Part shown: positions 3,231 through 63,946 of the stretch, piece after piece
Layout of the letters: each line of letters begins with the position of its first letter
Numbering within the stretch: the first letter of the stretch is position 1
Virus record (IMG/VR): IMGVR_UViG_3300036851_000534
Coordinates: 1-63,946 of that record
Origin: a virus
DNA length: 63,946 nucleotides
Direction: 5' to 3' (one strand)
Position numbers and translations under genes: made by a program
The notes under the pieces: generated by a model
Seen by the model: the letters and a program-made list of their open reading frames with translations, nothing else
Database searches by the model: none
Told to the model about the DNA's origin: nothing

Positions 3231-3487
3231 AGTAGCCCTTTCTGGACCAGGTGAAGAGCCAAGGCAATGGCGTGCTTGCACTTTCGGTTCGTTCCGGCAC
3301 AGCGGTAAACGTGATCGGGGCAGGAGCAGCCCTGCCCACTGACCTCATAGCGACCGCCGCTCGCTGTCTCCACGCGCCAGCCGGCCGCTGTCTTCGTCCA
3401 CTGCATCGCCTCGCCTTCCGCGAGCGCCCGGGAGACCCGGGCCTCACGGGCGCGCCGGAGCGTCTCTTCGGGGGTGGGTGGGGTCAT
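3227..3487 (-). CDS. SWIM zinc-finger protein
   Basis: 86 residues from ATG 3487 (CGGGAG upstream). Residues 45-75 read CSCPDHVYRCAGTNRKCKH, a CxC-x(n)-CxH arrangement typical of SWIM domains. A second phage gene, 31512-31826, has a recognisably related segment (CSCAEWHQHCQGTDRRCCH), so the two may be paralogues split between early and late regions. SWIM domains bind nucleic acid or protein partners; no catalytic domain is attached. Confidence 0.75.
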   Translation of the reverse strand: MTPPTPEETLRRAREARVSRALAEGEAMQWTKTAAGWRVETASGGRYEVSGQGCSCPDHVYRCAGTNRKCKHAIALALHLVQKGLL

Positions 3488-3803: not shown

Positions 3804-4013
3804 TTAGACGAAGATGCCTCGGGCGGTGCTGGAGGCTATCCAGCGATCAAGCGCCTCGTCAGCAGCGCGTTCGTCCGCGGCCATGGCGGCGCGCTGCGCC
3901 TCGGGTGTAAGAGCATTCCAGTAGGCCATGAAGGTCGCCTCCAACTCATCGAGTGTAGCCCGGGGCTCGCTCCCTCCCTCGTCTTCAAAAGGATCGTTCC
4001 AGGTTGTTGCCAT
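3804..4013 (-). CDS. Hypothetical small acidic helical protein
   Basis: 69 residues from ATG 4013 with GGAGAGGGAG just upstream. Acidic and helix-rich. It is the first gene of the leftward early operon after the promoter at 4062-4091, so it is probably among the first proteins made. Function unknown. Confidence 0.7.
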   Translation of the reverse strand: MATTWNDPFEDEGGSEPRATLDELEATFMAYWNALTPEAQRAAMAADERAADEALDRWIASSTARGIFV

Positions 4014-4417: not shown

Positions 4418-4494
4418 GACCGCAACGGCGCGAGGTGCCGGGCTGGGTTACTTCGCTTCAAATGAAACGCCCGCCCAACCTTCCCTCGCTCCTT

Positions 4495-4575
4495 GCAGTC
4501 CGTGGCGGCGCCCGGCGTTTCACGCGGTTGCACTGGTCGCGCCGGGCGTGGCAGGTTCGACTCCTGCCGGCTGCA
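4495..4575 (+). other. tRNA-like element (T arm and acceptor-like pairing)
   Basis: GCAGG-TTCGACT-CCTGC (4551-4567) is a perfect T arm with the conserved loop. The seven bases after it (CGGCTGC) pair with GCAGTCC at 4495-4501, with one G-U pair and one mismatch. The middle 49 bases do not form normal D and anticodon arms; instead CGCCCGGCG and CGCCGGGCG make a 9-bp stem. There is no encoded CCA. It could be a decayed tRNA, a tRNA mimic or a chance resemblance. Confidence 0.3.
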
Positions 4576-4618
4576 CTGGGCAATGGTCGCCTGCCTGTGC
4601 TATACTCGTCCTAATGTG

Positions 4619-5104
4619 ATGCGCTTTGTCGCCGACCAAGCTCCACCGCATTGGCGCGGGTCCGAATGGCTGGCGGCAGTATGCGAGGGGGCGGGACTGA
4701 CGCTCGAGCAGGCAGAGGCAGCCCATCTCGTCGTGGCGGGCTGTCCCTGGGCCCGGCTGGCCGGCGCGCTCTCCCAGGTCATGGGAGAGCGGATGGGCGC
4801 CCGGCGCGCCCGGCGGAGAGCCTGGCAGGCTGGTGTGGAACTCCGCCGCTATCGGGCGGATCTGCATGCAGAGCACTGGGCCGAGGCTCGGGATCTGCTC
4901 TCCTGCCTGCGGAATACGACGCCCTGTCGCCCCCCCTTGCAGGTCTACGCAGAGAAATGGGGCGTGATCGACCGCGATGCCGTCCGCTTCCGGAGCCGCC
5001 TCGACGGTGAGCATCCGGAGGACCTGGCCCGGCATCCCCTGCGCTTCCTGCGGGACCTCGGCCGTCTGCGCAAGCGCCTTGCCGAACGCGCCTCCGGCGA
5101 GTAG
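4619..5104 (+). CDS. Hypothetical protein at head of the rightward region
   Basis: 161 residues from ATG 4619. The upstream open frame runs through the tRNA-like element and is not credible coding. GTG at 4616 is an alternative start. The protein is Arg-rich and helical, with an SQVMGERMGARRARRRAW stretch that suggests nucleic-acid binding. No family recognised. The -10 box TATACT lies 12 bases before the ATG and no ribosome site is visible, so a very short leader is likely. A terminator follows at 5230. Confidence 0.6.
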   Translation: MRFVADQAPPHWRGSEWLAAVCEGAGLTLEQAEAAHLVVAGCPWARLAGALSQVMGERMGARRARRRAWQAGVELRRYRADLHAEHWAEARDLLSCLRNTTPCRPPLQVYAEKWGVIDRDAVRFRSRLDGEHPEDLARHPLRFLRDLGRLRKRLAERASGE

Positions 5105-5229
5105 CCGGGTATGAGCTGCGCGCCCTCTCGGTTATCCCACGCGCCTTCGCGGCAAGCAAGCAACAGCCGTCTTCCTCCGTTTTCTGCGGTGTCCGGTTCG
5201 GATGTATTCCACATGTCTCCTTTCGGGTT

Positions 5230-5262
5230 AGCCCTCGCCCTGTCGGCGGGGGCTATTTCTTT
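5230..5262 (+). terminator. Rho-independent terminator
   Basis: AGCCCTCGCC (5230-5239) pairs with GGCGGGGGCT (5245-5254) across a five-base loop and is followed by ATTTCTTT. It separates the gene ending at 5104 from the methylase/endonuclease locus. Confidence 0.65.
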
Positions 5263-5265
5263 GGT

Positions 5266-5346
5266 ATGAGCGAAGCGCGCGCCGTTCCCATTACCAGCAT
5301 CGAGTTCGATGCGGCGAACGCGAAAGAGAAGGAACAAGCGGAGCGG
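5266..5346 (+). pseudogene. Displaced 5' end of the ParB-like/methylase gene
   Basis: From ATG 5266 the frame encodes about 27 residues, including AVPITSIEFDAANA. This aligns with ALPIDRIFFDAKNA in the first 20 residues of the intact methylase at 6142 (9 of 14 identical). After it the frame loses similarity and the GIY-YIG gene begins at 5364. The natural reading is that this was the original start of the methylase gene, cut off when the endonuclease gene arrived with its own replacement 5' end. Confidence 0.7.
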
Positions 5347-5363
5347 GTGTTGAACTTAAGTGC

Positions 5364-6179
5364 ATGGAAACAACCTTCATCTATGCACTTGCGGACCCTC
5401 GGGATGGAGCGTTGCGCTATGTCGGGAAGTCAAACGCCCCTAAGGTCCGCTATCGCCGCCATGTGACTGAGGTCAACACGACGCATCGTGTCTGCTGGAT
5501 TAAGGGCCTGCGGCTCCTGGGATTGCGTCCGACCCTGATTATCCTTCAGGAAGTGCCTCGTGAGACCTGGGAAGAGTTTGAACGTGCTTGGATACAGCGG
5601 CTCAAGACAGAGGGGTGCGCCCTCACCAACCTGACAGATGGCGGTGGGCATTGTGAGCTTGGCCCAGAAGCGCGGGCGAAAATGCGGGCCGCGAAGGTCG
5701 GGAAGCCGCCTCACAATAAGGGCAAGCAGACTTCTATAGAGGCGCGGCAGAAACAGAGCGAGTCTGCAAAGCGGCGTTGGGAGCGGATGACTGCGGAGGA
5801 GAAGCAGCAGGGGGTGGCTCATTTGCGAGGGATCCCCCAGAAGGGCCGGCCTGGGCATCCACAGACGCCCGCGACTCGAGCGAAGATTTCGGCAGCAGGG
5901 ATTGGCCGGCGGCACTCTGAGGAAACCCTCAGGAAGCTGTCGGCCGCATCGAGAGGCCGTCCGCACAAGGCGACCGGGCCGTGTTCTCCCGAGCGCAGGG
6001 AAAAGATTAGCAGGACACTGCGTGCATTGTCTGACGAGCAGGTCACCGAAATACGCTTGTTGCTCGCGGAAGGTCGGTTGACGGGCAAAGAGATTGCCGC
6101 GCGAGTTGGGGTGGCGCCGCAGAAAATCTCAACGATCAAGAATGGGAAAACCTACCGAGATTACCGCGCTCCCCATTGA
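5364..6179 (+). CDS. GIY-YIG homing endonuclease with NUMOD-like and HTH modules
   Basis: 271 residues. N-terminal GIY-YIG nuclease domain (residues 1-90): FIYALADP and LRYVGKS supply the two signature strands, VRYRRH the arginine, and FERAWIQ the metal-binding glutamate. NUMOD3-like repeats (GPEARAKMRAAKVGKPPHNKG type) follow around residues 95-190. An HTH is at the end (LTGKEIAARVGVAPQKI). Such proteins cut a target allele and spread their own gene. Its last 38 bases overlap the new start of the methylase gene in another frame. A displaced copy of the methylase start lies directly upstream. Confidence 0.88.
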   Translation: METTFIYALADPRDGALRYVGKSNAPKVRYRRHVTEVNTTHRVCWIKGLRLLGLRPTLIILQEVPRETWEEFERAWIQRLKTEGCALTNLTDGGGHCELGPEARAKMRAAKVGKPPHNKGKQTSIEARQKQSESAKRRWERMTAEEKQQGVAHLRGIPQKGRPGHPQTPATRAKISAAGIGRRHSEETLRKLSAASRGRPHKATGPCSPERREKISRTLRALSDEQVTEIRLLLAEGRLTGKEIAARVGVAPQKISTIKNGKTYRDYRAPH

Positions 6180-7476
6180 CCGCATCTTTTTCGATGCGAA
6201 AAATGCCAACGTCGGCACTGAGCGGGGCCGGCAGGTCCTCGCCCATTCCCTGGCGACCTATGGCGCCGGCCGGTCGATCCTGGTAGACCGTCAGGATCGG
6301 GTGATCGCCGGGAACAAAAGCCTGGCAGAGGCGGTCGCCGCCGGCATCGCTACGGTGCGCGTGGTGGAGACGGACGGCTCCGAGCTGGTAGCGGTGCGGC
6401 GCACCGACCTGGACCTCGACGAACCAAAGGCCCGCTTGTTAGCGTTTGCGGATAATCGCAGCTCGGAACTTGATCTCGCTTGGAATGTGGAGCAGATCGC
6501 GGCCGACCTCGATGCCGGCCTCGACCTCTCGGCGCTCTGGACCGGGGATGAGCTAGAGGAACTGCTGCGGGGTCTTCAGGAGCCGGGCGGTGGCCTCGTG
6601 GAGGGCGTCGATCCCGACGTCATCCCAGAGAGCGTGCCCTCCCGCTGCCAGCCGGGCGACCTCTGGCAACTGGGCCGGCACCGGCTGCTCTGTGGCGATA
6701 GCACGAAGGCGGAGGACGTGGCGCGGCTGATGGAAGGCGAGGAGGCGGATCTCTGTTTCACCTCGCCGCCCTACGATCAGCAGCGGCAATATACCGGCGG
6801 GATCGGCGACTGGCTGACGCTCATGCAGGGCGTCTTCGGCAACCTGCCGATGGTGGAGAAGGGGCAGGTGCTCGTCAACCTGGGGCTCGTTCACCGCGAC
6901 GGGGAATGGCGGCCCTACTGGGACCCGTGGATCGCCTGGATGCGGGAACAGGGCTGGCGCGCTTTCGGCTGGTATGTCTGGGATCAGGGGCCGGGACTCT
7001 GTGGTGATTGGAACGGCCGGCTGGCACCCGCGCACGAGTTCATTTTTCACTTCAACCAGATCGCAGAGAAAGCGCGTAAGTCGAAGGCAACTGCCTCGCC
7101 GGGCTGCTATCAGCACGGCCCCGGCTTTAAGCGGCGGGACGGCTCTGCGGCAGCGAAGAAGACCGGACACGGCCAGCCGGTGCAACCTAAGAAGATCCCT
7201 GATAGCGTGATTCGGGTCATGCGCCAGAAGGTCGGCGGCCTTCCAACCCAACATCCCGCCATCTTCCCTGTCGCCCTCGTTGCGGAGATCATGCAAGCCT
7301 TCTCCGACCCAGGCGATCTCTGCTTCGAGCCCTTTGCCGGTAGCGGGACCGCCTTGATCGCCGGGCATGAGCATGGCCGGCGTGTCTGTGCGCTGGAGCA
7401 GGAAGCAACTTACTGTGATATCGCGATTGCCCGCTTCGAGCAGGCCACCGGCCTCTCGGCCAGGCGGCTCGACTGA
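6142..7476 (+). CDS. ParB-like nuclease-fold/DNA methyltransferase fusion
   Basis: 444 residues. The N-terminal 110 residues look like the ParB/Srx fold seen at the front of many phage methylases (RSILVDRQDRVIAGNKSL). The C-terminal part is a class-beta amino-methyltransferase: TSPPYDQ (motif IV) near residue 210 and FEPFAGSGTALIA (motif I) near residue 395. It would methylate adenine N6 or cytosine N4 in DNA, for self-protection or packaging control. The ATG at 6142 lies inside the end of the GIY-YIG gene and has no clear ribosome site. A methionine 48 bases upstream in frame is an alternative but lacks similarity to the displaced start at 5266. Confidence 0.88.
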   Translation: MGKPTEITALPIDRIFFDAKNANVGTERGRQVLAHSLATYGAGRSILVDRQDRVIAGNKSLAEAVAAGIATVRVVETDGSELVAVRRTDLDLDEPKARLLAFADNRSSELDLAWNVEQIAADLDAGLDLSALWTGDELEELLRGLQEPGGGLVEGVDPDVIPESVPSRCQPGDLWQLGRHRLLCGDSTKAEDVARLMEGEEADLCFTSPPYDQQRQYTGGIGDWLTLMQGVFGNLPMVEKGQVLVNLGLVHRDGEWRPYWDPWIAWMREQGWRAFGWYVWDQGPGLCGDWNGRLAPAHEFIFHFNQIAEKARKSKATASPGCYQHGPGFKRRDGSAAAKKTGHGQPVQPKKIPDSVIRVMRQKVGGLPTQHPAIFPVALVAEIMQAFSDPGDLCFEPFAGSGTALIAGHEHGRRVCALEQEATYCDIAIARFEQATGLSARRLD

Positions 7477-7877
7477 TGCTTCAGCGTATCTATATCGCCG
7501 GCCCCTACACGGCCCCGACCCCGAAGGGCGTGCAGGTCAACCTTGACGCCGCCTTCCGCGCCGCCATTTGCCTTATCCGGCTCGGCCACGTCCCGTACTG
7601 CCCGCACCTCACCCATTACCTGGATGCGGCGGCCCTCGCCCTGGGCGTCAATATCGAATACGAGGAGTGGCTCGGCCAGGACCGCGAATGGCTCGCTCTC
7701 TGTGACGCGCTGCTCTACCTGGCGCCCTCACCCGGCGCCGACCGGGAACGGGACTGGGCGGCGGCGCTCGGGCTCGTGATCTACCACCGGCTCGACGAGA
7801 TCCCTCCCGCCGAGCAGAAGCGGCTCCCTGCTCCTTTGTTGAAAGAGCAGCAGCAGCAGTGGGACGTAGGGGCATAG
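7476..7877 (+). CDS. DUF4406/nucleoside 2-deoxyribosyltransferase-like protein
   Basis: 133 residues. It begins RIYIAGPYTAP and has VPYCPHLTHY near residue 50, then YEEWLGQD and CDALLYL, the typical order for DUF4406 proteins related to nucleoside 2-deoxyribosyltransferases. Family members move or hydrolyse deoxyribosyl groups of nucleotides, but activity cannot be assumed. The start overlaps the methylase stop by one base, which hints at a role in nucleotide supply or DNA modification. A longer relative is encoded at 49387-49947. Confidence 0.8.
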   Translation: MLQRIYIAGPYTAPTPKGVQVNLDAAFRAAICLIRLGHVPYCPHLTHYLDAAALALGVNIEYEEWLGQDREWLALCDALLYLAPSPGADRERDWAAALGLVIYHRLDEIPPAEQKRLPAPLLKEQQQQWDVGA

Positions 7878-19662: not shown

Positions 19663-19920
19663 GTGGCACTGCTGGATAGCGCGGCGCGGGCGGATGCCAC
19701 GCGAAAGTTCGTGGAGGCATTCTTCGTGGGACTCGCGCGGGTCGCGGATTTGGATAGTGACGAGGTGCGGACCCTGGTGAACGATCTGGATGCGTGGCTT
19801 GACGCGAACCAGACGGCGGCGAACAATGCGATTACGACAAGTGTGCGGAACAAGGCCAGCACCACCACGAAGTTCGCGGCGCTGGCTTACGTCGCCCTTA
19901 AAAGAGGGAACGTCATTTAG
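19663..19920 (+). CDS. Small helical protein with replaced 3' end
   Basis: 85 residues from GTG 19663, helical (VEAFFVGLARVADLDSDEV). The last residues are ALKRGNVI and its stop overlaps the convergent HNH gene by eight bases. A second copy of this ending, ALKRGGVI plus stop, lies on the far side of the HNH gene at 20580-20606. The present ending uses AT-richer codons (CTT AAA AGA) than the displaced one (CTC AAG CGC), so it probably came with the endonuclease. Confidence 0.65.
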   Translation: MALLDSAARADATRKFVEAFFVGLARVADLDSDEVRTLVNDLDAWLDANQTAANNAITTSVRNKASTTTKFAALAYVALKRGNVI

Positions 19921-20560
19921 CGACAGGGGTGCTGAACGCCTTGTCGATTGACCACCCGGCTTTGAGGCGATGCGCCAGGGTTCGTCGGTCGATGCCGAGG
20001 AGTTTCCCCCAGTCATTGAGGAGACGAGTTTCCCCGCGCCATTCAAGCGGGCGACTGCTGCGGCGATTCTCATTCTGTTCAATCCGGGATGCCCAGCGGC
20101 AGTTTCCCGGTTCATAGTTGCCGTTGTTGTCGATGCGCTCGATCGTATAATCTGGCCCCGGTTTCTTGCCCACGTCAGCAAGAAATGCCGAGAAGTCCAT
20201 CCAGCGTTCGCAGATCGTAATGCCGCGTCCGCCATAGTCGGCATAGCGAGGGTGAGCCGGGTTTAGGCACCGGCGCTTCATGTGCTGCCAGGAGTTGTAT
20301 TCAGGCGTTGGCTTTTGCCTCCGGGTGTTCCCGTGGGAGGTGAACTGCGCGCGGCATCGTTGCACAGAGAGTTCGCGGTTGAGACATCCGCAGGAGCGTG
20401 ATGCTCCACCCCGGAGGATATCGCCGCGAACGACCACGGTGCCGCCGCAATCGCAGTGGCAAAGCCAGAAGCCGCCTCTGCCACGAACTACGTGGGAGAG
20501 AGACATGACGGTGAGGCGCCCGAAACAGAGGCCAGACATGTTGATGATGGGTCTGCTCAT
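19913..20560 (-). CDS. HNH homing endonuclease inserted at a gene end
   Basis: 215 residues, opposite in direction to its surroundings. The N-terminal part has CHCDCGG and CGCLNR, probably zinc-bound. The HNH core is at about residues 90-165: SWQHMKRRCLNP, YGGRGITICERW, IERIDNNGNYEPGNCRW. A C-terminal HTH follows (WGKLLGIDRRTLAHRLKAGW). A TATAAT box lies about five bases before the ATG, so it has its own promoter and almost no leader. Related proteins are at 41035 and 56110. Its last codons overlap the new 3' end of the invaded gene. Confidence 0.9.
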   Translation of the reverse strand: MSRPIINMSGLCFGRLTVMSLSHVVRGRGGFWLCHCDCGGTVVVRGDILRGGASRSCGCLNRELSVQRCRAQFTSHGNTRRQKPTPEYNSWQHMKRRCLNPAHPRYADYGGRGITICERWMDFSAFLADVGKKPGPDYTIERIDNNGNYEPGNCRWASRIEQNENRRSSRPLEWRGETRLLNDWGKLLGIDRRTLAHRLKAGWSIDKAFSTPVAK

Positions 20561-20579: not shown

Positions 20580-20606
20580 GCGCTCAAGCGCGGCGGAGTG
20601 ATCTAG
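20580..20606 (+). pseudogene. Displaced 3' end of the small gene at 19663
   Basis: Encodes ALKRGGVI and a TAG whose G is the first base of the next gene's GTG start, the tight coupling expected of the original operon. The intact gene now ends 660 bases upstream with ALKRGNVI. The HNH gene lies between the two. Confidence 0.7.
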
Positions 20607-31511: not shown

Positions 31512-31826
31512 ATGGAAAGAGTTCCGCACGTCCCCACCGTTCTCCTCCCCGTGGAGCACCCGCGCCCCGAGCCATCCGCCTACCACTGGCAGCCCTGGCA
31601 CGAAGACCGCTGGCTCTGCGAGACCCAATCCGGCTCCCTGTACATCGTCGGCGCCGATGGCTGCTCCTGCGCGGAATGGCACCAGCACTGCCAGGGAACC
31701 GACCGCCGCTGCTGTCATCAGAGCGCCCTGGGGTACAGCCTCATCAGCCAAGGCTCGGCGCTGACCCTGCTCGGCCTGGAGTTGCTCGAAGAAGAGCCGG
31801 CGACGGGAGGGCATCATGGATGCTGA
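31512..31826 (+). CDS. SWIM-like zinc-finger protein
   Basis: 104 residues. CSCAEWHQHCQGTDRRCCH (around residues 51-70) parallels the early SWIM protein at 3227-3487. Trp- and His-rich N-terminus. The last residues overlap the start of the GIY-YIG fusion by eleven bases. Probably binds nucleic acid. Confidence 0.65.
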   Translation: MERVPHVPTVLLPVEHPRPEPSAYHWQPWHEDRWLCETQSGSLYIVGADGCSCAEWHQHCQGTDRRCCHQSALGYSLISQGSALTLLGLELLEEEPATGGHHGC

Positions 31827-32985
31827 GGCCCGCTTCGCCCGCCGCGGCTCCCTGACCCATCTTGGGTCGTTGAAGCACCTCCGTCCTCGGCAAACGTGGC
31901 AGGCGCCGCCCTTTGACATGCGCCCCGCCTGGGATACCTTCGAGGCGGAGACCCGCGAGGCGCTGAAGCAGCATGAGGCCGAAGAGTCGGACGCCCCGCC
32001 CCCCTCGGGGGGCGGGGCCGATCGGCTGCCCGATCCACAATCCGGATTCATCTTCATCTACGCGCTCACGCATCCAGAGACCAATGCAGTCAGCTATATC
32101 GGACGCACAAATCAGCCACACGTCCGATGGCGAAGGCATTGTCGCACGGAGGACCGAGGCCGGGCATTAGGCCGCTGGATTATCGCTCTGCGGGATCAGA
32201 ACCAGAAACCACAGATGCGGGTTTTGGAGATGGTTCCGGAGAGCGAATGGCAAGAGGCGGAACGGCGGTGGGTTGCTCACTATCGCTCGCAAGACGCACC
32301 CTTGATGAATGGCACGGATGGCGGGAACGGGAGTAGACACGGACTTCAGTTCTCGCCGACGCACTGCAAGCGGATTAGCGAGGGACGCAGGGGCATAGCG
32401 TACACGCCACAGGCCCTAGAAAATCTGCGCCAAGCCGCCAAGGAACGAGCGCAGCGTTACCGGGCCAGCGGACAGAAGCGCACCATGTCCGCCGAACAGC
32501 GCGCCGAACTCAGCGAGCGCACGAAACGGCAAATGTTAGCCGCCTATCCCTTGACAATAGCCGGGGTGACAAAGACGCGGGCGCAATGGGCGAGGGAGAA
32601 TGGCATCCAGCCAGCGACGATAAAATCGCGTTTGGAGCGTGGGTGGGATCCCGTCGCAGCAGTCACGACCCCCGCTCGCATCGGCTGCCCTCTCGGCCGT
32701 CCTGTGAGTGCAGAAACTCGGGCCAAAATCGGGCAGTCCAACCGGGGCAAAAAGCATGCCAAGGGCTGGAACCACTCCGAGGAGGCGCGAGAAAAGATGC
32801 GCGCTCGATCACTCGCACATTCTGGTCGGCTCTGGGAAGGTTTTCAACGCCCGGACGGATCGCCCATCGAAGCATTCCCGAACTTGCATGCCTTCTGTGC
32901 TGAACATGGACTTCTGGTTTCATCCATGCATGCCGTCTATCATGGTCGCTGCCGCCAGCATCGCGGCTGGACCTGCCGCCGCTAG
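31816..32985 (+). CDS. GIY-YIG endonuclease fused to a phage gene's N-terminus
   Basis: 389 residues. The first 75 residues (helical, EALKQHEAEESDAPPPSGGG) look like the start of an ordinary phage gene. At residue 76 a GIY-YIG domain begins: FIFIYALTHPE and VSYIGRT, VRWRRH, and EAERRWVAHYRS with the catalytic Glu. HTH/NUMOD-like modules follow (RAQWARENGIQPATIKSRLERGW and FPNLHAFCAEHGL). It appears that the endonuclease gene inserted into or replaced the 3' part of the original gene, creating a fusion. Confidence 0.85.
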   Translation: MDAEARFARRGSLTHLGSLKHLRPRQTWQAPPFDMRPAWDTFEAETREALKQHEAEESDAPPPSGGGADRLPDPQSGFIFIYALTHPETNAVSYIGRTNQPHVRWRRHCRTEDRGRALGRWIIALRDQNQKPQMRVLEMVPESEWQEAERRWVAHYRSQDAPLMNGTDGGNGSRHGLQFSPTHCKRISEGRRGIAYTPQALENLRQAAKERAQRYRASGQKRTMSAEQRAELSERTKRQMLAAYPLTIAGVTKTRAQWARENGIQPATIKSRLERGWDPVAAVTTPARIGCPLGRPVSAETRAKIGQSNRGKKHAKGWNHSEEAREKMRARSLAHSGRLWEGFQRPDGSPIEAFPNLHAFCAEHGLLVSSMHAVYHGRCRQHRGWTCRR

Positions 32986-37577: not shown

Positions 37578-37770
37578 GTTACAAGCGGCGAGTATCTGCT
37601 TGCGCCGGACTGACGGCGAAGAGTTGTGGATCGACCGGGAAGAGGGCAGTCGTGTCGCGATCCGCTGGGAGGATCGCGAAGCGGGTTTCTATTCCTCGCT
37701 GACTCTTCAGCCGCATGAGGCCCGCCAACTCCTCGCCTGGCTGAAGGAGCAGTTCCCGGAGGACGCATGA
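37531..37770 (+). CDS. Tandem small-protein family, member 1
   Basis: 79 residues. It overlaps the tail gene by 47 bases, so the true start may be later. It ends HEARQLLAWLKEQFPEDA. Members 2 and 3 end in nearly the same way, and the repeated DNA carries the next gene's start. Probably a duplicated accessory protein; function unknown. Confidence 0.6.
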   Translation: MARPIESSVVCSKVRELQAASICLRRTDGEELWIDREEGSRVAIRWEDREAGFYSSLTLQPHEARQLLAWLKEQFPEDA

Positions 37771-37958
37771 GCGAGCCCAAGCACTATATCGCCTCCGATG
37801 TCGATCTGCTGTGCCGGAAGATCATCACCCGGCATGGCAGCCATTGCCTGATGATCCGTCTTGGTCGGGAGCCATCAGAGCAGGCGGCCATCCTTGACAC
37901 GCAGGAGACGCGCAACCTCCTCGCCTGGCTGAAGGAGCAGTTCCCGGAGGACGCATGA
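37767..37958 (+). CDS. Tandem small-protein family, member 2
   Basis: 63 residues from an ATGA overlap. Ends ETRNLLAWLKEQFPEDA, identical in its last 12 residues to member 1. The N-terminal half differs, so either the N-terminus has diverged or only the 3' segment was copied. Confidence 0.65.
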   Translation: MSEPKHYIASDVDLLCRKIITRHGSHCLMIRLGREPSEQAAILDTQETRNLLAWLKEQFPEDA

Positions 37959-38167
37959 GCGATGGCTTCTCGAAGGCGCCTACTCCTTCCGCGCGTCGGC
38001 TGATCTGGTGGACCCCAGAAGGGAGCCTGGAAGTGTCCGTTACCGCTGACGGTGTGGCAGTGTTCCGGGTGGATATCGGGCCGGAGCACTGCTGTTTCGC
38101 GCTGACCGAGGCGGATCGGCATTCTCTCCTCGCCTGGCTCAAGGCGCAGTTCCCGGAGGAAGGATGA
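37955..38167 (+). CDS. Tandem small-protein family, member 3
   Basis: 70 residues. Strand-rich middle (GSLEVSVTADGVAVFRVDIG), then DRHSLLAWLKAQFPEEG. It shares the C-terminal helix and the start-overlap arrangement with members 1 and 2. Confidence 0.65.
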   Translation: MSDGFSKAPTPSARRLIWWTPEGSLEVSVTADGVAVFRVDIGPEHCCFALTEADRHSLLAWLKAQFPEEG

Positions 38168-38373
38168 GCGAGCGGTACATCCTCGACCTGCGCGAGGAGC
38201 CGATCCTCCATTTCGATGTGCGGCGGCAGCGGCGCTTACCCTGGACGCCGTCTCACATCTCCGTGGAGGTGCGACCGGAAGGGGGCGGGGATAGCCTCAC
38301 CCTGCGACTCGCCGAGGGGCAGGCCGAGGCGCTGCTGATCCTGCTTGAGCGCGAGGTCGGTCGGAAGGAATAG
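38164..38373 (+). CDS. Tandem small-protein family, member 4 (diverged)
   Basis: 69 residues. Same plan: strands (HISVEVRPEGGGDSLTLRL), then a C-terminal helix AEALLILLEREVGRKE that has lost the LLAWLKEQF wording. It overlaps member 3 as ATGA. Confidence 0.6.
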   Translation: MSERYILDLREEPILHFDVRRQRRLPWTPSHISVEVRPEGGGDSLTLRLAEGQAEALLILLEREVGRKE

Positions 38374-41034: not shown

Positions 41035-41787
41035 TCACTCATCCTGGGGATTTGTAAGGATTCGCTCAACAGGCCAGCCTCGATCCAGGCGGCGCCCGAG
41101 CGTTCGGTGATTGCATCCGAGCCGCTTTGCCCATTGTGTGAGAGAGAGGGTTTCTCCCTGATAGACTATCAAGCGCGGCTTCCTTTCGGGGCGAGGAGGT
41201 TCCGTCAGGGCTTTTTCGATCGGCCACCCCTGTGCCAGACGGTAACGGAGAGTTGTCGGATCGAGATTGAAACGAGCGGCCCAATCTTCCCGGGTTAGCC
41301 GTTCTCCTTGATACTCAATAAAACGGTTCGTTCTTTTGTTCCGTTGCTGCTCTGCCGTTGTCGCCCAGCGAACGTTGCCAGGTTCGTAGTGGCCGTCATT
41401 GTCGATCCGCTCCAGGGAGTGATTCGCGCCGGGGCGCCAGCCCATATCTTCGATAAACGCCGCAAAGTCGTGCCAGCGTTCGCAAACCCGGATCCCTCGT
41501 CCCCCGTAGAGCGGCCAGACCTTCAGATTGGGATTTCGACAGCGCGCGAGCATCGACTGCCAGACCTTGTATTCCGGTGTCTGCCAGCCGCCATGTTTGG
41601 CGAGTCTTTTCCCCATGCACGCGCGGCAACTGGAAGTTTTCCCGGTGCGAAGATTGAGGGCATAAATGGGTTTTTCGACCCCACAGGCACAGCGACAAAG
41701 GACGTGACGCCGCGCTTCATATCGGGGCAACTCTGCCAGGACGGTCCATTGTCCGTACGTCTTTCCGATCATCGGTATCTTTTCCAT
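41035..41787 (-). CDS. HNH homing endonuclease with duplicated C-terminal HTH
   Basis: 250 residues. N-terminal CRCACGV and CRACMG (zinc). HNH core at residues 75-150: VWQSMLARCRNPN, LYGGRGIRVCERW, LERIDNDGHYEPGNVRW. Two C-terminal HTH units (LTREDWAARFNLDPTTLRYRL and LSLTQWAKRLGCNHRTLGRRL) indicate a duplicated DNA-binding module. A TACAAT box lies about eight bases before the ATG. Unlike the other two HNH genes, no displaced gene end is visible beside it. Confidence 0.9.
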   Translation of the reverse strand: MEKIPMIGKTYGQWTVLAELPRYEARRHVLCRCACGVEKPIYALNLRTGKTSSCRACMGKRLAKHGGWQTPEYKVWQSMLARCRNPNLKVWPLYGGRGIRVCERWHDFAAFIEDMGWRPGANHSLERIDNDGHYEPGNVRWATTAEQQRNKRTNRFIEYQGERLTREDWAARFNLDPTTLRYRLAQGWPIEKALTEPPRPERKPRLIVYQGETLSLTQWAKRLGCNHRTLGRRLDRGWPVERILTNPQDE

Positions 41788-45286: not shown

Positions 45287-45374
45287 GCCTTCCCCCAGTC
45301 CCGGCAGCAGGTCCGGTGATAATACACCCAGCCGGCCTCATTGCGCCTGAGGAGGATCGCCGCCGCGGCGCATT
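45283..45374 (-). pseudogene. Displaced 3' end of the zinc gene at 45687
   Basis: Reads CAAAAILLRRNEAGWVYYHRTCC, then RDWGKA and a stop. The intact gene now ends RNDQGWLYYHRTCCRDGKG. The displaced stop still overlaps the next start (GTGA), as expected of the original operon. About 310 bases of foreign-looking DNA separate the two ends. Confidence 0.75.
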
Positions 45375-45686: not shown

Positions 45687-45941
45687 CTAACCCTTCCCAT
45701 CCCGACAACATGTCCGGTGATAATATAGCCATCCTTGATCGTTGCGCCCCGTCCGCATTCCCTCCTTTCCCAGGATCGGCGTGCCGCAGCCGACGCAGGT
45801 CGGGGCGACCAACTCCGCCATGCACAACTCCAGGTCGGCCAGTTCCTCGGTGAAGGTCCGCGCGTCCAGACCATCTCGCTCGACAACGGCCACGAACTGC
45901 CGGGCCGCCTCGACGACGCTGTTCAGCCGCTCGCGATTCAT
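45687..45941 (-). CDS. Zinc-site protein with replaced 3' end
   Basis: 84 residues. Helical N-terminus, then CVGCGTPIL and YYHRTCCRDGKG. The cysteines and His probably bind one zinc. Its present stop is followed by the TnpB-like remnant and then a second copy of its own ending. It overlaps the upstream gene by four bases. Confidence 0.7.
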   Translation of the reverse strand: MNRERLNSVVEAARQFVAVVERDGLDARTFTEELADLELCMAELVAPTCVGCGTPILGKEGMRTGRNDQGWLYYHRTCCRDGKG

Positions 45942-55628: not shown

Positions 55629-56162
55629 ATGCCACGCTTGATACCGGTGGACTGGACCCCCGAGTGTCGTATGTCGCGTCTGGTAATCCACTGGACGGCC
55701 GGAGCCGGGGCTCCTTCGGCAGAGGACCTCGAGAGTTACCATATTCTCATCGATCGGGTGGGCCTCCCCCATCGCGGCGACCACAGCATCCGCGACAACC
55801 TCAACACCATTGACGACGACTACGCCGCCCACACGCGCGCCCTGAATACCGGCAGCATTGGCCTGGCGCTTTGCGGAATGGCCGGCGCAAACCGGGCGCC
55901 GTTTGCTCCCGGGAGGTTCCCGCTGACCCGCCCGCAGTGGAATAACGCGCTCTTGGCCGCGGCGGATCTCTGCGAGCGGTATGGGATCGCGCCGGAGCGG
56001 AACACGCTCCTGATGCATTGCGAGGTGCCGCAGGCGCTTGGGGTGGCGCAGCGGGGAAAGTGGGACGTAACCGTTCGTACGTGGGCTGGGCCGCCGGAGT
56101 ATGCCTCGCTCACTCCAGGGGAAGAGTTAAGGGTTCGGGTGAAGAAACTTCTGGAGGGGTAG
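55629..56162 (+). CDS. N-acetylmuramoyl-L-alanine amidase (endolysin)
   Basis: 177 residues. RLVIHWTAGAGAP near residue 18 and LLMHCEVPQALG near 127 provide zinc ligands of Amidase_2/PGRP-type enzymes. GSIGLALCGMAGA near 77 is the usual central strand. It would cleave the peptide-glycan amide bond at lysis. The last 37 residues have a displaced, frameshifted copy at 56828-56939, and the present end overlaps the HNH gene by 53 bases. Confidence 0.88.
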   Translation: MPRLIPVDWTPECRMSRLVIHWTAGAGAPSAEDLESYHILIDRVGLPHRGDHSIRDNLNTIDDDYAAHTRALNTGSIGLALCGMAGANRAPFAPGRFPLTRPQWNNALLAAADLCERYGIAPERNTLLMHCEVPQALGVAQRGKWDVTVRTWAGPPEYASLTPGEELRVRVKKLLEG

Positions 56163-56811
56163 TCTTTTGCGGACGACTACGAATGGGGGCTGTGAGGGCT
56201 TTCTCGATATCCCAACCGGCCTTTAGCCGGCCGTGAAGTCGCTCCGGTTCGAGTCCGAGTTCGTGTGCCCATTGGGAGACGGTCTGCCGCCGGCCGTCCC
56301 ACTCGATCCAGACGTTTCGGCGCGTGTTGTTGGTGTTCTCGCGTTGAGTGGTCCATCGGCAGTTACCGGGGGCGTAGGGGCCGGCGCTGTCGATCCGATC
56401 CAGTACGGCCTTCGGGAAGGGTTTGGGTCCCATGGCGCGCAGGAAGTTGGCGAAGTCATGCCACTCTTCGGCTACGGTGATCCCTTGGCCGCCGTAGAAG
56501 CGATAGCGATCATGGTTTGGATTGTAGCAACGGCGCATCATACGCGCCCACGTCTGGTACTCTACGCTGGGGGTATGCTGGCGAGTGTGGCCGTGGGTAA
56601 CGCTTCTCTCACAGCCGCAACTCTTGCTTTCTCCCTTGAGGAGGGAGAAGAGGAAGACTGCATGCTCCGTTCCGCAGGAGCAGCGACAAGGGATGAACCA
56701 GTGAAGCCGCTTTCCGCGCAACTCTCGAAAGGGCGTGCCGATGATTTCCCAAAGTCCGACGTGCGCCCCGATCTCGGGGGCTTTCTCATGCATTCGCAGG
56801 CGTCTTCCCAT
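56110..56811 (-). CDS. HNH homing endonuclease inserted at the amidase gene end
   Basis: 233 residues from ATG 56811 behind GGAGG; longer frames exist but have no ribosome site. CRCSCGT and CGCERS near residues 40-60, HNH core at 75-150 (YQTWARMMRRCYNPNHDRY, FYGGQGITVAEEW, LDRIDSAGPYAPGNCRW), then an HTH (VSQWAHELGLEPERLHGRL). It converges on the amidase gene and its last 17 codons are antisense to the amidase's last codons, so the endonuclease gene carries the amidase's replacement end. Confidence 0.9.
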   Translation of the reverse strand: MGRRLRMHEKAPEIGAHVGLWEIIGTPFRELRGKRLHWFIPCRCSCGTEHAVFLFSLLKGESKSCGCERSVTHGHTRQHTPSVEYQTWARMMRRCYNPNHDRYRFYGGQGITVAEEWHDFANFLRAMGPKPFPKAVLDRIDSAGPYAPGNCRWTTQRENTNNTRRNVWIEWDGRRQTVSQWAHELGLEPERLHGRLKAGWDIEKALTAPIRSRPQKTTPPEVSSPEPLTLPLE

Positions 56812-56827
56812 CGCACTATCCTCCAAT

Positions 56828-56939
56828 GGTAAGTTCGACGTATCCCCCAAGACTTCCTGTGTTTTACCGAGGAAAGTACAACGCCGGGACTCCCGGCGAG
56901 GATCTGCGCCAGCGGGTAGAGTTGTTGCTGGAGGGGTGA
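56828..56939 (+). pseudogene. Displaced, frameshifted 3' end of the amidase gene
   Basis: It begins GKFDVSPKTS (compare GKWDVTVRTW in the amidase). After a frame change it continues AGTPGEDLRQRVELLLEG and stop (compare SLTPGEELRVRVKKLLEG). It lies directly behind the HNH start codon and eleven bases before the next gene's ATG. The shift shows that this copy no longer encodes protein in one piece. Confidence 0.8.
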
Positions 56940-56950
56940 GGAGTAGATAC

Positions 56951-57184
56951 ATGCCGAAGATCACGAAAGCCAACGCCTTATGGCATGCGGAGCGCGTCGA
57001 GGTGGCGATTGACGGTCCCGGCCCCGGTGGCATCTCGGTGACGCTCGCGCGGCCCGGGGATTGGTGCGCCTATCTGGAGACGAGTGACGGTGAACTGGTC
57101 TTCAAGGCGTTTCTGACGGACCAGGAGTATCGGGAAAAGTTTGTGCGTGTCGCGGGCGGTAGCCTGGCGGCGGAGCGTCGTTAG
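56951..57184 (+). CDS. Hypothetical small protein after the amidase locus
   Basis: 77 residues from ATG 56951 behind GAGGAG. Strand-rich (RVEVAIDGPGPGGISVTLAR). It overlaps the convergent membrane protein gene by four bases. It may have followed the amidase gene directly before the HNH insertion. Confidence 0.65.
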   Translation: MPKITKANALWHAERVEVAIDGPGPGGISVTLARPGDWCAYLETSDGELVFKAFLTDQEYREKFVRVAGGSLAAERR

Positions 57185-63400: not shown

Positions 63401-63822
63401 GGCGCGCTTTCCTCTGCCTCGCATGCCGGACACTCCCAGTCCCCGCGCGGCGCCGGGCGCACCGGCCGTCCGCACTGACCGCAGAGGAGCAGCACGCGCA
63501 GCGCCTGCGTCCCCTTCCCTCCGGGCCCGGGGGCGAGCGCCTCCCCGAGCCAGGAATGGGTCTCGCCCACTGCGCCGGCGTAGGCCGCGGCGCCGGCCGG
63601 GTCCGCTTCATGCCAGCCTTCCCAGCACTCCCGCGCGATGGTGGTCGCCTCGACGGCCCGCTCGGCGGCGTCTTGCAGCTCGCGCACGGTCTCGAAGTGC
63701 GCCTGCTGGAGAATGGTGCTCGCTTCGACGGCGCGCTCGGCGGCGTCTTGCATCTGTTCTACGAGGGACTGCAAATCGACGCTGCCGTTCATTAGAAACG
63801 GCGGGTCATCATAGATGCTCAT
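63397..63822 (-). CDS. Zinc-ribbon protein with repeated helical segment
   Basis: 141 residues. Residues 25-80 contain two copies of a unit around QDAAERAVEA. CGQCGRP and CPACEAE near the C-terminus make a zinc ribbon. Its ATG overlaps the stop of the gene that crosses the circle joint, which supports circularity. Confidence 0.7.
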   Translation of the reverse strand: MSIYDDPPFLMNGSVDLQSLVEQMQDAAERAVEASTILQQAHFETVRELQDAAERAVEATTIARECWEGWHEADPAGAAAYAGAVGETHSWLGEALAPGPGGKGTQALRVLLLCGQCGRPVRPAPRGDWECPACEAEESAP

Positions 63823-63946
63823 CCTGCCGCTCCTTTCGCGGCTTCCCGCCGCTCTTTCTCCGCCTTGATGCGTTTCCGCAGTTCCATGCCATAGCTATAG
63901 AGAGCGGCGTTGGTCTCCTCCTCCGGCACGATCGGCGCGAGCACTG
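63820..63946. repeat. Exact 127-base terminal direct repeat (right copy)
   Basis: Identical to bases 1-127. Confidence 0.95.

What the first reader, a model, noticed from the sequence alone, without database searches (positions are those of the whole stretch)
5266..6200. Displaced 5' end of the ParB-like/methylase gene upstream of a GIY-YIG gene
AVPITSIEFDAANA at 5287-5328 matches ALPIDRIFFDAKNA in the first 20 codons of the methylase. The intact methylase now starts inside the last 38 bases of the endonuclease gene. This is the only case in which the 5' rather than the 3' end was replaced.
Basis: seen in the sequence. Interest (0 to 1): 0.75.

Follow-up and report, generated by a model that had tools for sequence, protein, structure and literature searches.

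The report
Endonuclease insertion displaced methylase gene's start
A selfish DNA-cutting gene in a bacterial virus appears to have landed at the start of a DNA-methylase gene, leaving the old start behind as a decaying stub and supplying a replacement start, so the methylase stayed whole.

Summary
ORF 5266 is the displaced, decaying 5' end of the ParB-like/DNA-methylase gene. A GIY-YIG homing-endonuclease gene (5364-6179) lies between it and the intact methylase, whose ATG (6142) is inside the endonuclease's last 38 bases.

The strongest evidence is an empty site. Relative L098 has a homologous upstream gene, a hairpin-plus-T-run, then 11 bases later the methylase ATG, with no endonuclease. 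In the window the same order ends, 10 bases after the hairpin, at ATG 5266. DNA similarity of the stub to the methylase start is the best place in the window outside the methylase (score 37, next 32). It runs to about 5347 with a frameshift, so it looks like a pseudogene.

Sequence alone is weak. Profile E-values for the stub are 0.025, 0.2 and 21 depending on the training set, and a translated-flank test was not significant. Whether only the 5' end, or more, came with the endonuclease could not be decided.

Gene-end replacement by endonuclease genes is known in fungal mitochondria (3' ends). A phage 5' case would be a new variant.

The parts
4618..5104 (+). HTH-like phage gene upstream; conserved synteny anchor (ORF given by the ORF listing as 4493-5104)
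   Evidence: 58.7% aa identity to G001/L098 over 4619-5068 and 31.8% to G002; same order before the methylase in L098 and L092; HTH-like is my reading of the sequence, no Pfam match reached its cut-off
5229..5255 (+). hairpin followed by T-rich tail, terminator/attenuator-like, directly before ATG 5266
   Evidence: 11-pair stem, 5-nt loop; L098 has a 13-pair stem with 5-nt loop at the same place; RNA fold z -2.4 and -3.6
5266..5347 (+). displaced, decaying 5' end of the ParB-like/methylase gene (stub); in-frame similarity ends at 5322, DNA similarity with frameshift runs to about 5347
   Evidence: position versus L098
5348..5363 (+). inferred left junction between stub and endonuclease gene
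   Evidence: end of the DNA alignment; inference
5364..6179 (+). GIY-YIG / NUMOD3 homing-endonuclease-like gene with C-terminal HTH
   Evidence: Pfam NUMOD3 1.9e-15, GIY-YIG 2.4e-4 (just under its cut-off), HTH models below their cut-offs; PHROG homing endonuclease 9.7e-13
6142..6231 (+). present (replacement) 5' end of the methylase, first 38 bases inside the endonuclease gene
   Evidence: GC 56.7% against 65.6% for the rest of the gene
6142..7476 (+). ParB-like N-terminal domain plus N6/N4 DNA methylase gene
   Evidence: Pfam N6_N4_Mtase 3.6e-19; PHROG DNA methyltransferase 3.2e-62 and ParB-like partition protein 1.6e-15

Best explanation
ORF 5266 is the fossil 5' end of the resident ParB-like/methylase gene. 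A free-standing GIY-YIG homing endonuclease cut the gene near its conserved start region (about codons 25-36, inferred). Repair on the right side used homology to a donor phage's methylase and copied leftwards through that donor's own 5' end and the endonuclease gene just upstream of it. The result is old hairpin and old start (stub), then endonuclease, then methylase with a foreign start. The methylase stays intact, its start may no longer be cut, and the stub decays. Shown: gene order, empty site in relatives, stub/start similarity, frameshift decay. Inferred: the cut, the one-sided repair, the donor, transcription from the old leader.
For: Empty site: G001/L098 has no match to the endonuclease and has HTH gene, hairpin, 11 bases, methylase ATG; the window has HTH gene, hairpin, 10 bases, ATG 5266. 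G002/L092 also has HTH gene, then methylase, with no endonuclease between; L093 has the methylase without an endonuclease directly upstream. None of the candidate upstream ORFs of 71 of 83 ParB-family loci (12 had no candidate) resembled the window's endonucleases at E<=1 (three query proteins only, loci partly redundant). Stub DNA is the best match to the methylase start outside the gene, 11 of 6,197 geometric controls reach it, and it is frameshifted after about 5330. In a 42-base block the pairing stub+L098 / methylase+L092 scores 53 against 48 and 44, supported in 74% of codon bootstraps: a weak hint that the stub is resident and the present start foreign. A clearer displaced gene end beside another endonuclease gene in the same genome: HNH gene 56110-56800 follows the 3' end of gene 55629-56162, and TPGEDLRQRVELLLEG* lies beyond it at 56889-56939; G001 and G003 have that gene without the HNH gene after it. 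Fungal mitochondrial precedent for gene-end replacement by endonuclease ORFs (PMC3630166, passages).
Against: Homology is short (about 17 residues, about 70 bases). Protein-profile E-values are weak and one is not significant. The translated flank test failed. The direct DNA comparison of stub with L098 is not strong (573 of 20,000 shuffles reach it; 246 of 5,000 with the leader). No recombination breakpoint inside the methylase (permutation p = 0.48). The ParB-domain tree puts the window's methylase beside L098 (support 84/31, weak), so no foreign origin is shown. The junction was not found in any other viral contig, so a mis-assembly cannot be excluded.
Confidence: 0.68

Rival explanations
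1. The stub is the remnant of a different, neighbouring ParB-like gene (tandem pair), most of which was lost when the endonuclease gene arrived; the methylase start was never replaced.
For: The stub lacks the G(T/S).RG motif that nearly all relatives have; tandem methylases exist in related phages, e.g. AcaML1 gp24/gp25.
Against: L098 and L092 have one ParB gene at this place, in L098 at the hairpin-adjacent position taken by the stub. The missing motif is explained by the frameshift in the DNA alignment, where the following bases still align.
Confidence: 0.17
2. The 5266 frame is an unrelated small gene or non-coding leader, and the resemblance is chance.
For: Weak protein scores; the frame is open by itself from 5011.
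Against: Position after the hairpin; best DNA match in the window; no homologue found as a small gene.
Confidence: 0.12
3. The stub is a 5' exon and the endonuclease lies in a self-splicing intron.
For: Spliced phage genes with unrecognised short 5' exons are described (PMC10448857, passages).
Against: No Rfam match to any intron in 4500-7600 at E<=1 (only a sub-threshold 24-bit sRNA hit on the hairpin) or in the window at gathering scores; the downstream gene has its own complete start, so splicing is not needed.
Confidence: 0.03

Closest known systems
Mobile endonuclease ORFs that carry a foreign gene end in fungal mitochondria (Glomus sp. atp6, atp9, cox2, nad3; first case Allomyces macrogynus atp6), PMC3630166
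   Same: Endonuclease ORF beside a host gene; new end attached to the working gene, old end displaced to the far side and divergent (63.5% nt between the two ends in Glomus atp6; 28 of 42 here)
   Different: There the 3' end is replaced, in mitochondria, with mRNA evidence; here the 5' end, in a phage, by sequence only
Tremella fuciformis mitochondrial introns with duplicated host-gene fragment, PMC7315562
   Same: Mobile element brings a divergent copy of part of the host gene
   Different: Described as introns whose 5' end holds a fragment like the following exon; no intron was detected here
T4 free-standing GIY-YIG (seg) and HNH (mob) homing endonucleases, PMC2988022
   Same: Free-standing GIY-YIG gene between phage genes, small overlap with a neighbouring ORF, displaced transcription starts
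   Different: In the passages I read, no displaced gene-end remnant is described, and the listed overlaps are with the upstream ORF; here the overlap is with the downstream one
HEGs at boundaries of exchange between phages, PMC10448857
   Same: Endonuclease genes lie beside essential or conserved genes and mark recombination edges
   Different: In the passages I read, replacement of a gene's own end is not described
Integrative elements that give a new 5' end to their target gene, e.g. SXT in prfC (recalled, no call)
   Same: New 5' coding end supplied by the invader
   Different: Uses an integrase and attachment sites; none tested or seen here

Membership tests
GIY-YIG homing endonuclease (free-standing) | GIY-YIG catalytic domain | tested here: inconclusive
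   PF01541 21.8 bits against cut-off 22.6, but PHROG homing endonuclease 9.7e-13 and Seg-like/GIY-YIG annotated relatives
GIY-YIG homing endonuclease (free-standing) | NUMOD3 / HTH DNA-binding modules | tested here: met
   NUMOD3 56.9 bits, cut-off 20.4, 3 stretches; HTH models only below their cut-offs
GIY-YIG homing endonuclease (free-standing) | present/absent polymorphism at the site | tested here: met
   absent beside the methylase in L098, L092, L093
GIY-YIG homing endonuclease (free-standing) | cleaves the endonuclease-free allele | not testable with these tools
   needs enzyme assay
Gene-end-replacing mobile endonuclease ORF | host gene end present twice, divergent, one on each side of the endonuclease | tested here: met
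   28/42 nt; score 37, rank 1 in the window; weak by protein profile
Gene-end-replacing mobile endonuclease ORF | far copy sits at the ancestral gene position | tested here: met
   hairpin-ATG spacing 10 and 11 bases, same upstream gene
Gene-end-replacing mobile endonuclease ORF | attached end is phylogenetically foreign | tested here: inconclusive
   74% of bootstraps on 42 bases; breakpoint p 0.48; tree weak
Group I intron | intron covariance-model match around the endonuclease | tested here: not met
   no intron match in 4500-7600 at E<=1
ParB-like domain/DNA methylase | D..NAN.G(T/S).RG...GAGRS motif plus N6/N4 methylase domain | tested here: met

The most novel reading that the evidence does not exclude
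Free-standing endonucleases in this phage group act as gene-end-swapping cassettes: each carries a divergent copy of the near end (5' or 3') of its target gene, keeps the gene working, destroys its own target site and leaves the old end as a fossil. That would extend to phages, and to 5' ends, a mechanism described for fungal mitochondrial genes.
Probability: 0.35. Interest if true: 0.65.

Novelty: new variant of a known kind. Interest (0 to 1): 0.42.

Why it matters
If true, it shows how a homing endonuclease can enter the coding part of a conserved phage gene without an intron or intein and without breaking it: the endonuclease brings a substitute gene end. The fossil end then marks roughly where the cut was made, which gives a prediction of the target site for an enzyme assay. 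It would also be a source of chimeric phage genes and of wrongly called gene starts.

Tried and rejected
Protein-profile proof: not obtained (E 0.025, 0.2, 21). Translated flank test for the five endonuclease-like genes: not discriminating in this GC-rich genome. Scores 45, 55, 53, 38 and 71; controls (n = 400) at or above: 288, 147, 164, 383 and 27. Recombination breakpoint in the methylase: none (p 0.48 for both aa and nt). Tree of the ParB domain, 69 rows: the window pairs with L098 only weakly. Structure of the ParB domain: model too poor to use (mean pLDDT 51.8). Intron reading: rejected. Other contigs with the same left junction: none. Displaced 3' end at 19.9 kb (ALKRGNVI* / ALKRGGVI*): the residues are visible, but DNA alignment did not confirm it. 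Promoter scan: the only promoter-like site in 4950-6300 (6176-6204) lies after the methylase ATG, so it does not help. Paper searches for a phage or 5' precedent (listings only apart from the four papers read in passages) gave none for a phage 5' end; these searches are narrow and the library lacks most subscription journals.

Counting notes: of 86 ParB-family loci tried, three had no motif by my regular expression and were dropped (83 kept), 12 of 83 had no candidate upstream ORF. Loci overlap (L126, L127, L128 are the contigs of L092, L098, L093). In one search, rows that were short or identical were dropped (69 kept, window included). The 42-base block was chosen by eye; searches use a 90-base query fixed by the gene start.

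Full report
WHAT IS THERE. The window is a virus record (G000, 63,946 bases) with a 125-base direct repeat at its ends. It holds terminase, portal and other head genes. At 5266 a 66-codon frame starts MSEARAVPITSIEFDAANA. At 5364-6179 lies an intact endonuclease gene with NUMOD3 repeats, a GIY-YIG domain just below its Pfam cut-off and a homing-endonuclease PHROG match. At 6142, 38 bases before the endonuclease gene ends, starts a methylase with a ParB-like N-terminus.

IS THE SIMILARITY REAL? By DNA, 28 of 42 bases match without gaps, the best place in the window apart from the gene itself. A gapped alignment scores 37 against 32 for the next place. It continues past the in-frame part to about 5347 with a two-base insertion and a one-base deletion, as expected of a decaying copy. 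Controls: 2 of 100 randomised windows, 2 of 20,000 randomised regions, and 11 of 6,197 real-sequence pairs at the same geometry. By protein it is weak: E 0.025 and 0.2 with 9 and 8 N-termini, 21 with 60, and not significant in a translated flank test. A start-anchored D..NA is found at 7 of 2,859 open start codons, the stub and the methylase among them.

THE EMPTY SITE. L098 (record G001, about 70% DNA identity in terminase and portal) has the homologous upstream gene (58.7% aa), a hairpin with T-run ending at 3977, then ATG 3989 and the methylase MAEIVPLSSLLPDSANANLGTERGREVL; it has no match to the endonuclease. In the window the hairpin ends at 5255 and ATG 5266 follows. The first bases of the stub thus lie where the methylase starts in the relative. 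L092 (G002) has the same gene order without the endonuclease, though its hairpin is not next to the start; L093 (G003) has the methylase with other small genes upstream. G002 does hold other endonuclease-like genes elsewhere. Of 83 ParB-family loci, 71 had an upstream ORF to test and none resembled the window's endonucleases.

WHAT HAPPENED, MOST LIKELY. The stub is the left half of a cut gene: old hairpin and old start. The gene to the right of the endonuclease carries a different start, 67% identical in the block compared, about the divergence seen between these phages' genes (68.9% for window and L098 over the aligned methylase). A local recent duplication is therefore unlikely. One-sided homologous repair from a donor that already had the endonuclease just upstream of its methylase explains the order. 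The pairing of stub with L098 and present start with L092 points the same way (74% of bootstraps), and so does the lower GC of the first 90 bases (56.7% against 65.6%), but both are small samples. No breakpoint was found inside the gene and the ParB tree is unresolved. I cannot say how much of the methylase came with the endonuclease.

THE SAME PATTERN ELSEWHERE IN THE WINDOW. The window has five endonuclease-like genes. At 56 kb an HNH gene on the minus strand overlaps the 3' end of gene 55629-56162; beyond it the frame ending at 56939 repeats TPGE.LR.RV..LLEG*, while G001 and G003 have the gene without the HNH gene. Here a 3' end was displaced. The 19.9-kb case is suggestive only. No displaced end was established at 31.8 or 41 kb.

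RELATION TO KNOWN SYSTEMS. Replacement of a gene's end by an endonuclease ORF, with the native end left beyond it, is described for fungal mitochondrial genes, at 3' ends (PMC3630166, passages); the Tremella study describes introns that carry a fragment like the following exon (PMC7315562, passages). T4 endonucleases are free-standing, often overlap neighbours and can displace promoters (PMC2988022, passages). Endonuclease genes mark exchange boundaries in phages (PMC10448857, passages). In the searches I saw no phage case with a displaced 5' end. I file the gene as a GIY-YIG/NUMOD3 homing-endonuclease relative (cleavage untested), and the arrangement as a new variant of gene-end replacement.

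VERDICT. The rest is shared mainly by a remnant of a neighbouring ParB gene (0.17) and chance (0.12). Interest is moderate: a tidy, testable example rather than a new kind of system.

Noticed in passing
55629-56162, 56110-56800, 56799-56939: HNH gene (minus strand) overlaps the 3' end of gene 55629-56162; a second, displaced copy of that 3' end lies beyond it; G001 and G003 have the gene without the HNH gene.
   Followed up: partly
19897-19920 and 20583-20606, flanking HNH gene 19913-20560: ALKRGNVI* and ALKRGGVI* end two frames on either side of an HNH gene; possible displaced 3' end, not confirmed by DNA alignment.
   Followed up: partly
31816-32985 and 41035-41787: GIY-YIG and HNH genes; G002 has related endonuclease genes next to homologues of the same neighbours.
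   Followed up: no
6661-7476: Methylase domain looks swapped: residues 174-436 are 61% identical to L050/L056, whose upstream part differs, while L098 matches the ParB part but not 6774-7201.
   Followed up: no
1-125 and 63822-63946: 125-base exact direct terminal repeat: the record looks complete (circularly permuted or terminally redundant).
   Followed up: no
56951-57178; L114 8416-8643: A 76-residue reading frame lies in the opposite orientation in G001 relative to its neighbour.
   Followed up: no
37696-38172: Three tandem small frames share similar ends (LLAWLK.QFPE), with near repeats about 190-210 bases apart.
   Followed up: no
3236-3379 (-) and 31611-31754 (+): Two similar Cys-rich C-terminal stretches (SWIM-zinc-finger-like by eye, recalled), the second just upstream of the 31.8-kb GIY-YIG gene; relatives of the first also in G001, G002 and G003.
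   Followed up: no
45298-45345 and 45699-45746 (-): RNEAGWVYYHRTCCRD / RNDQGWLYYHRTCCRD: a repeated 16-residue stretch about 400 bases apart.
   Followed up: no
5229-5258; L098 3947-3977: The hairpin with T-run sits directly before the start codon in window and L098, so it may be an attenuator in the methylase leader rather than a terminator of the gene before.
   Followed up: partly
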